Assembly (NCBI RefSeq): GCF_000236685.1
Contig: NC_016633.1
Location: 2,976,001 to 3,040,000, forward strand
DNA: 64,000 nt
Direction of reading: 5' to 3'
Source of the DNA: Sphaerochaeta pleomorpha str. Grapes
GTDB taxonomy: Bacteria > Spirochaetota > Spirochaetia > Sphaerochaetales > Sphaerochaetaceae
The translations under genes were made by a program, and so were the position numbers. This document shows, one piece after another, positions 8,460-30,523 of this stretch. The notes beneath the pieces are model-generated. The model saw only the letters and a list, made by a program, of their open reading frames with translations. It did not search any database and was not told where the DNA came from. The first letter of the stretch is position 1, and the number at the start of each line of letters is the position of its first letter.

Positions 8460-8488
8460 ATTATATGAACTTGTTTCGTCTCTGTCAA
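8460..8488 (-). promoter_or_regulatory. Consensus sigma-70 promoter of infA
   Basis: On the minus strand TTGACA (8488-8483), a 17-base spacer and TATAAT (8465-8460) are both perfect consensus hexamers, 35 bases before the infA GTG. Confidence 0.85.
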
Positions 8489-26178: not shown

Positions 26179-27549
26179 CTACACATCCATCTGCTTGAGC
26201 ATTTTCCTGTTTGTCTCGATTGCCTCGGGAGTAAGCTTGTTGAGGGAAACGAATACCAACACACCGAGCAAAAAGAAGGCTGAAGGTATGGCCCCCATAT
26301 GCAAACTGATGCCTTTTTTTGCAAGGGGAGTTACGGATTCTGGGTTGAATCCTGTCAGTTTGTGGGTCAACCAGAACACCACAGCCTGGCTTGCATAGCT
26401 GAAACGCATGAAGAAAGCACGGATTCCCATGAGAACCCCGTCGTCCCTTCTTTTTTGCTTGACCACGATACTGTCGATGACATCGGCCATCGCAGGGCTC
26501 ATGAAAGTCCAAAACCCACCAAAACCAAGTCCCCAGAGAGTCATGCAGATAATAAATCCCAGTTGAGTGGATACAAAAGTAAGCGGGAGAGCAAAGGCAG
26601 CCATACACAAGGCACAGACAACCAGCATTTTCTGGTTGTTTTTCATTTTCTTTGCCACCTGGGTCCAGATCAAAATGGAGAGCAAAGCCCCGACGAGCAT
26701 CCCCGCAAAGATTGGGGTTGACTGGGAGCTTTTTGCCTCCAGGATGTATTTGACCACATAGTTTATGCTACTGGTCATGCACATGCATCCACTCTGGTAG
26801 AGAAAAAGGAACAGTACGAAGGCCAGCAGGTTGTGGTCTTTCAAACCTTGCTTCATCTGGGTGAAGAACGAGGGGCTTTCATTGGACTCATCGCTCTGCT
26901 GTTTTGCAAAGCGATTGATCATTTCTTTCGTCTCATGGACCCCAGGGATTACCAACAGGGTGCAGGTTATACCGACAAGGGCAATTACCAAGGCACAGGT
27001 AGCATAACTGGCACGGTTCCCGTATTGGAAAAACAGGGGAGGAATGATAAAGCCCGAGGCGATTCCCAAAACCCCGATACCTGTGCTGATAGCGGCGGTT
27101 GTGGTTCGTTCCTTGTCCGTACGGAATTTATCCGGATAGACACTCTGGTAGTTTACTTCCCACAGGGAATAGAGCCCGTCAAAGAGGCAGATGCTCAAAA
27201 CCATCCAAAGGAAGACTGGCAAGGGATTTGCCTTTGCATCCCAACCGGTAGGGACGGAAAAAATCAGAAGGAAGGCAAGGCTGCAGAGAACCAAGCCGAT
27301 GACAATCCAAGGGAACCTTCTTCCGAATTTTTTGGAGAACGGGGCAAATGTATTGGTTGCATAGCCGATGATGGGATCGTTGAATGCATTCCAAAGGGAA
27401 TAGATTACCGTCGCGGTCGCTGCATACCCTGCTGCCAGGCCAACCTCGGTCTCATAGAACATGAATACGATCGCCCCAAAGGCGCCGGTAAGGAACTCTG
27501 CGATGAACTTGCCGAAGCCATACGATGCCATGATTCTCTTTGAAAACAT
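26179..27549 (-). CDS. GPH-family sugar:cation symporter (MFS)
   Basis: A 456-aa membrane protein of the glycoside-pentoside-hexuronide:cation symporter group. The start YGFGKFIAEFLTGAFGAIVFMFYETEVGL and the WNAFNDPIIGYATN motif between helices 2 and 3 are typical, as is FGRRFPWI in the first cytoplasmic loop. About twelve hydrophobic helices. Such proteins import disaccharides, xylosides or uronides with Na+ or H+. No glycosidase is adjacent, so the substrate is open. Single gene, with a bidirectional terminator upstream separating it from the regulator at 27705. Confidence 0.88.
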   Translation of the reverse strand: MFSKRIMASYGFGKFIAEFLTGAFGAIVFMFYETEVGLAAGYAATATVIYSLWNAFNDPIIGYATNTFAPFSKKFGRRFPWIVIGLVLCSLAFLLIFSVPTGWDAKANPLPVFLWMVLSICLFDGLYSLWEVNYQSVYPDKFRTDKERTTTAAISTGIGVLGIASGFIIPPLFFQYGNRASYATCALVIALVGITCTLLVIPGVHETKEMINRFAKQQSDESNESPSFFTQMKQGLKDHNLLAFVLFLFLYQSGCMCMTSSINYVVKYILEAKSSQSTPIFAGMLVGALLSILIWTQVAKKMKNNQKMLVVCALCMAAFALPLTFVSTQLGFIICMTLWGLGFGGFWTFMSPAMADVIDSIVVKQKRRDDGVLMGIRAFFMRFSYASQAVVFWLTHKLTGFNPESVTPLAKKGISLHMGAIPSAFFLLGVLVFVSLNKLTPEAIETNRKMLKQMDV

Positions 27550-27650
27550 TTGAACCTTCCTTGATGCGATATTTCGTTATAACAGGGAACTATGGGTTTT
27601 GTCAAAAAGTCTTTGCCCGAGAGGGGGTTTTTCAGCTCTTTTCGGATATA

Positions 27651-27684
27651 AAAAAGCCAGGGAAACAATTACCCCGGCTTTTTT
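27651..27684. terminator. Terminator downstream of the XRE-cupin gene
   Basis: AAAAAGCC plus GGG pairs with CCC plus GGCTTTTTT around a short A/T loop, giving a stem flanked by A-run and T-run; it can act on both strands. It serves the minus-strand regulator gene ending at 27705. Confidence 0.7.
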
Positions 27685-27704
27685 GCAATGGCTGGAAAGA
27701 AAAT

Positions 27705-28277
27705 CTACCGTTTGTCCGGTGTAAACCGTACGACCATATGTACCACTGCCGGCTGGGCCGATTCATTGGTTATGGTGTGGTCGATATCGCAATGGTATAC
27801 GAGGAAATCACCTTTTTTAAGCTCAGCGATATTATCCCCCGCCTGTACCTTGACCGTTCCCTTCACCACGGTAAGAAATTCCTGTGTCCCCGGGTAGTGG
27901 GGTTCGCTGGGAAGCGAGGTATGGGGTTCGAAGGTAAGGAGGTACATTTCAAGCTCCTCTACCATCGTGAGCGGAGAAAGGATACGAATGGAAACCCCAT
28001 GTTCATGGGTCTCCAGTTTCGGGGCGTCATCGCCTGCAGGATTGACAGAAAATACCCGTTTGGGTTCCACTCCTGTCTCGAGCAGGTCATTGAGATCTAC
28101 GTTCAGGCCACGCGCTATTTTCCATACGGTGGCTACAGTTGGGTTTACCTTGTCGGATTCAATCTGGCTGAGCATCGCTTTTGAAACACCTGACCGCTCG
28201 GAAAGCACGTTAAGGGTCAACTTTCTGCTGTTGCGGATCCGCTGGATATTTTTTCCAATCATAGGAGGGTTTTCCAT
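27705..28277 (-). CDS. XRE-family regulator with C-terminal cupin domain
   Basis: A 190-aa transcription factor. Helix-turn-helix at about residues 10-65 (IRNSRKLTLNVLSERSGVSKAMLSQIESDKVNPT) and a cupin sensor at about 110-185 (YPGTQEFLTVVKGTVKV, GDFLVYHCDIDHTI). This architecture controls amino acid, polyamine or sugar-acid metabolism and senses small ligands in the cupin. The ATG at 28277 follows AAGGAG and gives the usual short N-terminus; a 50-residue longer frame crosses the promoter region and is rejected. Divergent from tdh-kbl with a shared 114-base region that carries a probable operator, so control of threonine breakdown and of itself is likely. Confidence 0.9.
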   Translation of the reverse strand: MENPPMIGKNIQRIRNSRKLTLNVLSERSGVSKAMLSQIESDKVNPTVATVWKIARGLNVDLNDLLETGVEPKRVFSVNPAGDDAPKLETHEHGVSIRILSPLTMVEELEMYLLTFEPHTSLPSEPHYPGTQEFLTVVKGTVKVQAGDNIAELKKGDFLVYHCDIDHTITNESAQPAVVHMVVRFTPDKR

Positions 28278-28299
28278 GGGTATTCTCCTTGTATAAAGT

Positions 28300-28328
28300 T
28301 TGACATAGTGAATATTGTTTAATATAAT
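28300..28328 (+). promoter_or_regulatory. Perfect consensus promoter of the tdh-kbl operon
   Basis: TTGACA (28300-28305), 17-base spacer and TATAAT (28323-28328), all consensus, 64 bases before the tdh start. A promoter this strong would need a repressor to be off in the absence of substrate. Confidence 0.85.
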
Positions 28329-28333
28329 AAACA
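28316..28333. promoter_or_regulatory. Inverted-repeat operator overlapping the tdh-kbl -10 box
   Basis: TGTTTA (28316-28321), ATATAA, TAAACA (28328-28333) is a perfect 6-6-6 inverted repeat centred on the -10 hexamer, the natural position for a repressor. The divergent XRE-cupin protein is the obvious candidate to bind it. Confidence 0.65.
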
Positions 28334-28391
28334 TGATAATTGTAAGCTTGCTTTTCTTGGTTGTCAAGGAATGACGCTTTCGGAGGTGTTC

Positions 28392-29342
28392 ATGAAACAT
28401 ATTTTGATCATTGGCTCGCTTGGTCAACTGGGATCTGAGATCGCAATGGAATGCCGTAGGCGTTATGGCTCAGATAATGTTGTGCTTACCGATATTCGTG
28501 ACGATACGAATCTGGAGCTTGTCCATGGGGGTCCCTTTTACAAGGTTGATTGCCGTGACGGAAAGACAATTGCGGAAATCGTGCAGAAACACCATATCGA
28601 TACGATCTATCACCTTGCCGCTATCTTATCGGCAACCGCAGAGAAAAATCCGCTCAATGCCTGGAATATCAACATCGGGGGTCTGGTTACCACACTGGAG
28701 ATTGCCAGGGAAAACGGTTGTGCTGTCTTTACCCCTTCTTCGATCGGGGCTTTCGGTCCTACCACTCCCAAAAAATTCACTCCCCAGGACACGATCCAGA
28801 GACCTACCTCCATCTATGGGGTCAGCAAGGTTGCAGGGGAGTTGCTGTGCGATTATTATAATCATAAGTATGATGTCGATACCCGTGGTGTCCGGTTCCC
28901 TGGGGTTATCAGCAATATGACTCCTCCGGGGGGAGGAACCACCGACTACGCGGTGGAAATTTATTATGAGGCTGTAAGGAAAGAGCATTATACCTGTTTC
29001 CTTCGGGGTGATACCTACCTTGATATGATTTACATGCCTGATGCGATCCAGGCTGCGATCCAGATAATGGAAGCAGACCCTGCCAGACTCAGGCATCGCA
29101 ATGCCTTCAACATTGCCTCCATGAGTTTCTGTCCAGAGGAACAGGCAGCCTATATCAGAAAGCTTATCCCAGGGTTTACAATATCGTATGAGGTCGACCC
29201 TGTCAGGCAGGCAATTGCAGATTCCTGGCCAGATAGCCTTGAGGATTATGCAGCGAGGGTCGAATGGGACTGGAAACCAAAATATGATTTGTTTTCGATG
29301 ACAAAGGATATGATCGATACGATCAAGAGGAGGGAGCTATGA
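28392..29342 (+). CDS. tdh: L-threonine 3-dehydrogenase, extended-SDR (epimerase-like) type
   Basis: A 316-aa NAD-dependent enzyme that oxidises threonine to 2-amino-3-ketobutyrate. It has the Rossmann start IIGSLGQLGSE (G8, G11, G14) and the SDR catalytic pair YxxxK (Y142, K146). PPGGGTTDYAVEIYYEA and the C-terminal DSWPDSLEDYAARVEWDWKPKYDL match SDR-type threonine dehydrogenases rather than sugar epimerases, as known from Flavobacterium, trypanosomes and animals. The partner gene kbl overlaps its stop by four bases, which strongly supports the call. ATG at 28392 follows GGAGG. Confidence 0.88.
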   Translation: MKHILIIGSLGQLGSEIAMECRRRYGSDNVVLTDIRDDTNLELVHGGPFYKVDCRDGKTIAEIVQKHHIDTIYHLAAILSATAEKNPLNAWNINIGGLVTTLEIARENGCAVFTPSSIGAFGPTTPKKFTPQDTIQRPTSIYGVSKVAGELLCDYYNHKYDVDTRGVRFPGVISNMTPPGGGTTDYAVEIYYEAVRKEHYTCFLRGDTYLDMIYMPDAIQAAIQIMEADPARLRHRNAFNIASMSFCPEEQAAYIRKLIPGFTISYEVDPVRQAIADSWPDSLEDYAARVEWDWKPKYDLFSMTKDMIDTIKRREL

Positions 29343-30523
29343 ACGAATATGTCCGTCATGAATTGCAGGAATTCCTCGATGAGCAGGAAAGACAGGGGTT
29401 GTCCAAGAAAGAGCGTATCCTTTCGAGCCCCCAGCGGGCAACCATTACGGTAAATGAAAAGCCGGTCATAAACTTCTGCGCAAACAACTATCTCGGTCTC
29501 GCCGATAACAAAGAGGTAATCCAGGCGGCTAAGGATGCCATGGACCGTTGGGGATTCGGCCTTTCCTCGGTGCGCTTTATCTGTGGTACACAGGAAATCC
29601 ACAAGGAACTGGAAAAAAGGGTCAGTTCGTTTCTCAAGACAGATGATACCATACTGTTCACGTCTTGTTTTGACGCAAATGCAGCAGTGTTTGAACCCCT
29701 GTTGGGCCCTGACGGGGCTATTATCAGTGACGAATTGAACCATGCCTCGATAATTGACGGGGTTAGGCTCTGTAAGGCCCAGCGCTTCAGATACAAGCAC
29801 AGCGACATGAACGAGCTGGAGAACTGTTTGATCGAGGCAAAGGATGCTGACCGCAAGCTCATTGCCACCGACGGGGTGTTCTCCATGGATGGTGATATTG
29901 CAAAGCTTGACAAAATCTGCGCCCTTGCAGAAAAGTACAATGCCTTGGTCATGGTAGATGATTCCCATGCGACTGGGTATATCGGTGATACCGGACGAGG
30001 GACTGCCGAATATCACCATGTACAGGACAAAGTCGATATCATTACCACTACCTTCGGAAAGGCCTGCGGGGGGGCAAGCGGTGGCTGTATCAGTGGAAGG
30101 AAAGAAATCATTGCCCTGTATCGACAGCGTGCAAGGCCCTACCTGTTCTCCAACACAGTCGCCCCTGCTATCTGCGGCGGGACCTTGAAGGTCTTTGACC
30201 TTTTGGAAAAAGGCAACCCTTACCGGGAAAAGACGCTGGAGAATGCGAAGTACTTCAGGGAAAAGATGGATAAGGCCGGTTTCGACCTGGTAAAGGGCGA
30301 CACAGCCATTGTCCCTGTGATGATCTACGATGAGGTGAAGGCCGTAGCCATGGCCGATGCGCTCCTTGAAAAGGGTATCTACGTGATCGGCTTCTGCTAC
30401 CCCGTAGTGCCGAAGGGTAAGGCCAGGATCAGGGTCCAGCTCTCTGCAGTCCACACAAAGAACGACCTCGATGCTGCAATCGAAGCCTTCACTGTGGTTG
30501 GAAAGGAAATGGAACTTATCTAA
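29339..30523 (+). CDS. kbl: Glycine C-acetyltransferase (2-amino-3-ketobutyrate CoA ligase)
   Basis: A 394-aa PLP enzyme of the alpha-oxoamine synthase family. It cleaves 2-amino-3-ketobutyrate with CoA to glycine and acetyl-CoA. Diagnostic features: FCANNYLGLADN, ATDGVFSMDGDIA, VDDSHATGYIG and the PLP lysine K241 in TTTFGKACGGASGG; RPYLFSNTVAP is the usual Kbl signature. Translationally coupled to tdh. The glycine it yields can enter the cleavage system encoded at 11.6-14.9 kb. Confidence 0.95.
   Translation: MNEYVRHELQEFLDEQERQGLSKKERILSSPQRATITVNEKPVINFCANNYLGLADNKEVIQAAKDAMDRWGFGLSSVRFICGTQEIHKELEKRVSSFLKTDDTILFTSCFDANAAVFEPLLGPDGAIISDELNHASIIDGVRLCKAQRFRYKHSDMNELENCLIEAKDADRKLIATDGVFSMDGDIAKLDKICALAEKYNALVMVDDSHATGYIGDTGRGTAEYHHVQDKVDIITTTFGKACGGASGGCISGRKEIIALYRQRARPYLFSNTVAPAICGGTLKVFDLLEKGNPYREKTLENAKYFREKMDKAGFDLVKGDTAIVPVMIYDEVKAVAMADALLEKGIYVIGFCYPVVPKGKARIRVQLSAVHTKNDLDAAIEAFTVVGKEMELI

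What the first reader, a model, noticed from the sequence alone, without database searches (positions are those of the whole stretch)
28300..28333. Perfect consensus promoter with an operator-like inverted repeat on its -10 box, between an XRE-cupin regulator and tdh-kbl
TTGACA-N17-TATAAT is exact and a perfect 6-6-6 inverted repeat (TGTTTA...TAAACA) covers the -10. The divergent XRE-cupin gene is next to it. This predicts that the cupin protein represses SDR-type threonine dehydrogenase and Kbl until a ligand (threonine or a product) binds, a simple switch for threonine use that I do not know as described.
Basis: partly seen in the sequence, partly recalled or inferred. Interest (0 to 1): 0.65.

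Follow-up and report, generated by a model that had tools for sequence, protein, structure and literature searches.

The report
Conserved switch controlling threonine breakdown genes
A DNA-binding sensor protein and its palindromic docking site, placed on the start signal of the threonine-breakdown genes, have stayed together across many spirochaetes and some distant relatives, so this is very probably a real on/off switch of a known general type applied to a pathway for which I found no described dedicated regulator.

Summary
TTGACA-N17-TATAAT is exact at 28300-28328, and a perfect inverted repeat (28316-28333) covers its -10 box. It is far more than chance. The motif GTTYAnTATAnTRAAC occurs once in this genome and once in 23 of 25 genomes of the genus (reversed-pattern control 0), in the xre-cupin | tdh-kbl intergenic region. 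Of 43 distinct xre|tdh intergenic regions, 37 hold an exact copy; none of 8,600 shuffles does. In four spirochaete genomes where the regulator gene is elsewhere, the site stayed with tdh. In a halophile clade the dyad sits on the regulator's -10 box instead of tdh's, so the dyad itself is conserved, not just a promoter. In Lentisphaeria the same regulator faces an unrelated zinc-type threonine dehydrogenase, pointing to threonine catabolism as the sensed pathway. Repression fits XRE-cupin precedents (PMC7901475). Binding, sign of regulation and ligand are untested. New regulon of a known regulator kind.

The parts
28300..28328 (+). tdh-kbl promoter: TTGACA (28300-28305), N17, TATAAT (28323-28328); predicted start near 28335
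   Evidence: sequence; same -35, spacing 17 and TATAAT/TATACT in most Sphaerochaetaceae intergenic regions
28316..28333 (.). operator O2: dyad TGTTTA-ATATAA-TAAACA on the tdh -10 box; 16-base core 28317-28332 matches GTTYAnTATAnTRAAC exactly
28298..28313 (.). probable second, weaker operator O1 (GTTTGACATAGTGAAT) on the tdh -35 box, 19 bp upstream of O2; 3 mismatches to the motif here, 2-4 in most Sphaerochaetaceae, and a better dyad (GTTTGATATAATGAAC) in an unlinked tdh promoter
28339..28367 (-). opposing promoter of the xre-cupin gene: TTGACA (28367-28362), N17, TACAAT (28344-28339); predicted start near 28332, at the edge of O2
   Evidence: sequence; conserved in nearly all Sphaerochaetaceae regions
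27705..28277 (-). XRE-cupin regulator, 190 aa: HTH (res. 8-66), cupin barrel (res. 89-184) with invariant H127, E133, H167
28392..29342 (+). tdh, SDR-type L-threonine 3-dehydrogenase, 316 aa (start corrected from the longer ORF)
29339..30523 (+). kbl, glycine C-acetyltransferase (2-amino-3-ketobutyrate CoA ligase), 394 aa, overlaps tdh by 4 bases

Best explanation
The repeat is the operator of the adjacent XRE-cupin protein. A dimer binds O2 on the tdh -10 box (and probably a second dimer binds O1 on the -35 box, one 19-bp step away), keeping RNA polymerase off the tdh-kbl promoter. Because the regulator's own promoter runs the other way and starts at the edge of O2, the same binding limits the regulator's own transcription. 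When threonine or a product of the pathway binds in the cupin pocket, the dimer leaves DNA and tdh-kbl are expressed, converting threonine to glycine and acetyl-CoA. Shown by sequence: promoters, operator, its conservation, its pairing with this regulator and with threonine dehydrogenase genes. Inferred: binding, repression, autoregulation, ligand.
For: Motif once per genome in 23/25 genus members, control 0; the two without it also lack a detected xre gene, one of them because its contig ends 53 bp upstream of tdh. 37/43 distinct regions exact against 0/8,600 shuffles. Both arms of the dyad outside the -10 hexamer are conserved (about 0.4-0.95 bits per column) against roughly 0 in the flanks. 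Four genomes with xre unlinked keep the double site upstream of tdh; none of the six unlinked xre genes has it in 149 bp upstream. In a halophile clade the exact dyad lies on the xre -10 and at about +2 to +17 of tdh. Lentisphaeria: same regulator divergent to zinc-type tdh (with kbl in L072) with near-matching dyads between them. Motif-first search of 148 class genomes: 13 of 22 loci lie beside an xre homologue, 12 of them also beside a tdh homologue. E. coli PuuR, a relative (26% identity, E 6e-15), has AAAATATAATGAACA in its target region, sharing the half-site TATAATGAAC. XRE-cupin proteins of P. aeruginosa are local repressors that bind palindromes in core promoters next to their own genes (PMC7901475).
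Against: No binding or expression data. Activation cannot be excluded from sequence alone, although a site on the -10 box argues for repression. Two genomes (G063, G064) have the regulator but no detectable SDR tdh. Some distant relatives (G059, one of three copies in G112) sit beside other genes, and in G059 the sites are degenerate. O1 overlaps the -35 consensus, so part of its conservation is promoter conservation. The ligand is unknown.
Confidence: 0.78

Rival explanations
1. The conserved sequence is only a strong sigma-70 promoter whose dyad arms are incidental; xre and tdh are simply neighbours.
For: TTGACA and TATAAT are themselves conserved, and a single inverted repeat on a -10 box is not very improbable (about 2.5%).
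Against: The arms outside the -10 hexamer are conserved; the exact dyad is kept where it no longer coincides with the tdh -10; it occurs once per genome in the genus.
Confidence: 0.04
2. The XRE-cupin protein uses the site but as an activator, or changes sign with ligand, rather than being a simple ligand-released repressor.
For: Not excluded by sequence; an XRE family regulator in Neisseria (NceR) activates ompA (PMC10470515, title).
Against: The dyad overlaps the -10 (and O1 the -35) of a consensus promoter that needs no activator; the P. aeruginosa XRE-cupin regulons determined are all repressed (PMC7901475); in the halophile clade the site lies over the tdh start region.
Confidence: 0.08
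3. The protein represses mainly its own gene, and tdh-kbl control is secondary; the true signal is not threonine-related.
For: Victivallales loci keep similar dyads upstream of xre without tdh alongside, one facing an NAAT-family transporter gene; G059 and one copy in G112 face an RNA-methyltransferase-like gene.
Against: Where genes are separated the site follows tdh, not xre; two non-homologous threonine dehydrogenases, and in one genome kbl alone, are the divergent partners.
Confidence: 0.1

Closest known systems
XRE-cupin local repressors of Pseudomonas aeruginosa (PsdR, PauR, ErfA, PA0535 and others; PMC7901475)
   Same: HTH-XRE plus cupin; palindromic site in a core promoter beside the regulator's own gene; small local metabolic regulon; suspected autoregulation in some
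   Different: None of the described regulons is tdh-kbl (the nearest is PA1359, controlling a putative RhtA-like threonine exporter); here the motif is GTTYAnTATAnTRAAC and the operator is shared by two opposing promoters
PuuR of E. coli (putrescine utilisation repressor)
   Same: Same architecture, 26% identity; its target region contains AAAATATAATGAACA, which shares TATAATGAAC with this motif; released by its substrate (putrescine, cited in PMC7901475)
   Different: 54 bits against a 211-bit equivalog cut-off; different pathway; the site is not a full palindrome of this type
Vibrio cholerae XRE-cupin protein, PDB 1Y9Q
   Same: Closest full-length solved relative (about 30% identity); PMC7901475 states that D-methionine is bound in its cupin pocket, so an amino-acid ligand has a precedent
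   Different: Target genes and ligand role not established in what I read
Lrp control of tdh-kbl in E. coli (own knowledge)
   Same: Regulates the same two-step threonine pathway
   Different: Global leucine-responsive regulator, unrelated protein, zinc-type Tdh

Membership tests
XRE-cupin transcription factor | N-terminal XRE/HTH_3 domain | tested here: met
   PF01381 E 3e-14, above gathering cut-off
XRE-cupin transcription factor | C-terminal cupin domain | tested here: met
   PF07883 E 3e-11; model matches an XRE-regulator cupin domain 6b8w Z 16.1, rmsd 1.8 over 95 residues
XRE-cupin transcription factor | palindromic operator in the core promoter next to its own gene | tested here: met
   (sequence evidence; binding not shown)
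XRE-cupin transcription factor | represses its targets | not testable with these tools
   needs expression data
PuuR (putrescine repressor) | NCBIfam equivalog score at or above cut-off | tested here: not met
   54.1 bits against 211
PuuR (putrescine repressor) | linked to puu polyamine genes | tested here: not met
   neighbours are tdh-kbl
SDR-type L-threonine 3-dehydrogenase | homology to characterised SDR threonine dehydrogenases across full length | tested here: met
   2yy7, 7ol1, 3wmw and others, E 1e-124 to 1e-65 over about 310 residues; other epimerases 1e-16 or weaker
SDR-type L-threonine 3-dehydrogenase | SDR catalytic Y-x3-K | tested here: met
   YGVSK in the translation
Glycine C-acetyltransferase (Kbl) | NCBIfam equivalog cut-off | tested here: met
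   617.9 against 460, 605.9 against 493
Threonine-responsive repressor | threonine or a pathway metabolite releases it from DNA | not testable with these tools
   needs binding assay

The most novel reading that the evidence does not exclude
A dedicated threonine-catabolism repressor, shared by spirochaetes and Lentisphaeria, that responds to threonine or a product, controls two evolutionarily unrelated threonine dehydrogenases in different lineages, and uses one operator to close two overlapping opposing promoters, with the operator sitting on either gene's -10 box depending on the clade.
Probability: 0.55. Interest if true: 0.5.

Novelty: new member of a known kind. Interest (0 to 1): 0.42.

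Why it matters
It gives a concrete, easily tested regulator-operator-target assignment for a whole family of otherwise unnamed XRE-cupin proteins, and a candidate threonine (or glycine/aminoketobutyrate) sensor. That the same regulator accompanies two non-homologous threonine dehydrogenases suggests the regulatory link outlasted replacement of the enzyme.

Tried and rejected
1) Larger regulon in this genome: the four one-mismatch sites lie in coding sequence or beside unrelated genes, about the number of the reversed control; rejected. 2) Promoter-only reading: rejected by the halophile-clade shift and arm conservation. 4) Filing the protein as PuuR: score far below cut-off. 5) Literature: searches for TdhR, threonine-catabolism regulons, XRE + threonine dehydrogenase and Sphaerochaeta found no described XRE-cupin control of tdh-kbl; most subscription papers and databases such as RegPrecise were not searchable, and the PuuR paper itself is not held. 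6) The fold of the model outside the cupin is barely tested by the structure list; the absence of other families there means nothing. 7) Perfect motif hits in the AT-rich unlinked genomes G060, G061 and G064 are background; the real tdh sites there are one or more mismatches away.

Full report
WHAT IS THERE. The window lies in a 3.59-Mb genome whose nearest named relatives are Sphaerochaeta. Between a minus-strand XRE-cupin gene (27705-28277) and plus-strand tdh (28392-29342) and kbl (29339-30523) there are 114 bases. They also contain an opposing promoter for the regulator, TTGACA-N17-TACAAT (28367-28339), whose predicted start (about 28332) falls at the edge of the same dyad, and a weaker copy of the dyad, GTTTGACATAGTGAAT, on the tdh -35 box, exactly 19 bases upstream.

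IS IT CHANCE. Within one genome the coincidence is only suggestive: an exact promoter is expected 0.1 times per window and a dyad of this quality on a given -10 box about 2.5% of the time. Across genomes it is decisive. The core motif GTTYAnTATAnTRAAC is present exactly once in this genome and once in each of 23 of 25 genus members, with no hit for the reversed control. Its positions match the xre-cupin | tdh intergenic regions found separately. The two genomes without it are the two in which no xre gene was found; in one of them tdh is present but the contig ends 53 bases upstream. Of 43 distinct xre|tdh intergenic regions with regulator identities from 100% down to 53%, 37 have an exact motif, 4 one mismatch and 2 two; none of 8,600 Markov shuffles has an exact one. 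These regions are related by descent, so the counts are not independent, but the regions are diverged outside the conserved elements. A motif-first search of 148 genomes of the class gave 22 loci; 13 lie beside an xre homologue (12 also beside a tdh homologue) and 9 look like background.

IS IT AN OPERATOR OR JUST A PROMOTER. Three results separate the two. First, in a non-redundant set the arms outside the -10 hexamer are conserved while the flanks are near zero bits. Second, in a halophile clade (L062, L065, L067, L068, L078, L082) the exact dyad lies on the -10 box of the regulator's promoter and, where the tdh promoter could be placed, at about +2 to +17 of tdh, the mirror of the Sphaerochaeta arrangement. 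Third, in four genomes where the regulator gene is not divergent to tdh (those of L046, L048, L050, L054), the double site is still upstream of tdh, while the 149 bases upstream of the separated regulator genes have none. The one intact xre-less tdh found (G058) has no site. In several more distant relatives (L028, L030, L059, L077) further dyads follow at the same 19-base step, which suggests side-by-side, possibly cooperative, dimers.

WHAT IT IS FOR. tdh is an SDR-type L-threonine 3-dehydrogenase by its solved relatives and kbl is above both equivalog cut-offs; together they turn threonine into glycine and acetyl-CoA (established pathway). In three Lentisphaeria contigs (L069, L071, L072) the same regulator (53-54% identical) is divergent to the zinc-type, non-homologous L-threonine 3-dehydrogenase (in L072 NF003808 575.5 against 380; TIGR00692 495.5 against 458), followed in L072 by kbl. 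Near-matching dyads lie between them. In G093 the regulator is divergent to kbl alone, and in G039 it forms a co-directional unit with tdh with an exact site in front. The common factor is the threonine pathway, not one gene family.

HOW IT MOST LIKELY WORKS. The protein has an HTH with an almost invariant recognition region (SKAMLSQIESDKVNPT) and a cupin barrel with invariant H127, E133 and H167, modelled with high confidence in the barrel and matching a solved XRE-regulator cupin. XRE-cupin proteins of Pseudomonas bind palindromes in core promoters beside their own genes and repress (PMC7901475); PuuR is released by its pathway substrate, and the Vibrio relative 1Y9Q holds D-methionine in the cupin (both as reported in PMC7901475). 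By analogy the protein represses tdh-kbl and itself and is released by threonine or a product. Binding, sign and ligand were not tested.

WHAT REMAINS OPEN. G063 and G064 have the regulator but no detected SDR tdh. Some distant homologues face other genes. I could not search RegPrecise or subscription literature, so 'undescribed' means not found in ten searches of open papers.

Noticed in passing
window 8460-8488, minus strand: A second exact TTGACA-N17-TATAAT promoter (TTGACAGAGACGAAACAAGTTCATATAAT) in the window.
   Followed up: no
L141 1400-1670: A diverged regulator (41% identity) and SDR dehydrogenase (43%) share a region with one exact and two near-exact dyads (GTTCAATATATTGGAC, GTCCAATATATTGAAC, GTTCAATATATTAAAC): a likely parallel system with multiple operators.
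   Followed up: partly
L076 3223-3873 and similar Victivallales-type loci L074, L075, L080, L081: More distant regulators (45-48%) with similar dyads upstream; in L076 the divergent gene is an NAAT-family (MarC-type) transporter, possibly an amino-acid transporter under a related switch.
   Followed up: partly
L135 and L166: Regulator homologues between a FabV-like reductase gene and an RNA-methyltransferase-like gene, not beside tdh; genome G112 has three regulator copies, two of them on the contig that also carries tdh-kbl.
   Followed up: partly
L037 1881-2937: The gene after tdh is only about 40% identical to Kbl, unlike close relatives (about 75%): possible replacement of kbl by another acyltransferase paralogue.
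   Followed up: no
window 26179-27549 and L050 4577-5989: A GPH-family symporter gene follows the regulator here (with a terminator-like hairpin between, seen by eye at about 27650-27686) and lies only 6 bases behind it in L050, where tdh is elsewhere; a functional link is possible.
   Followed up: no
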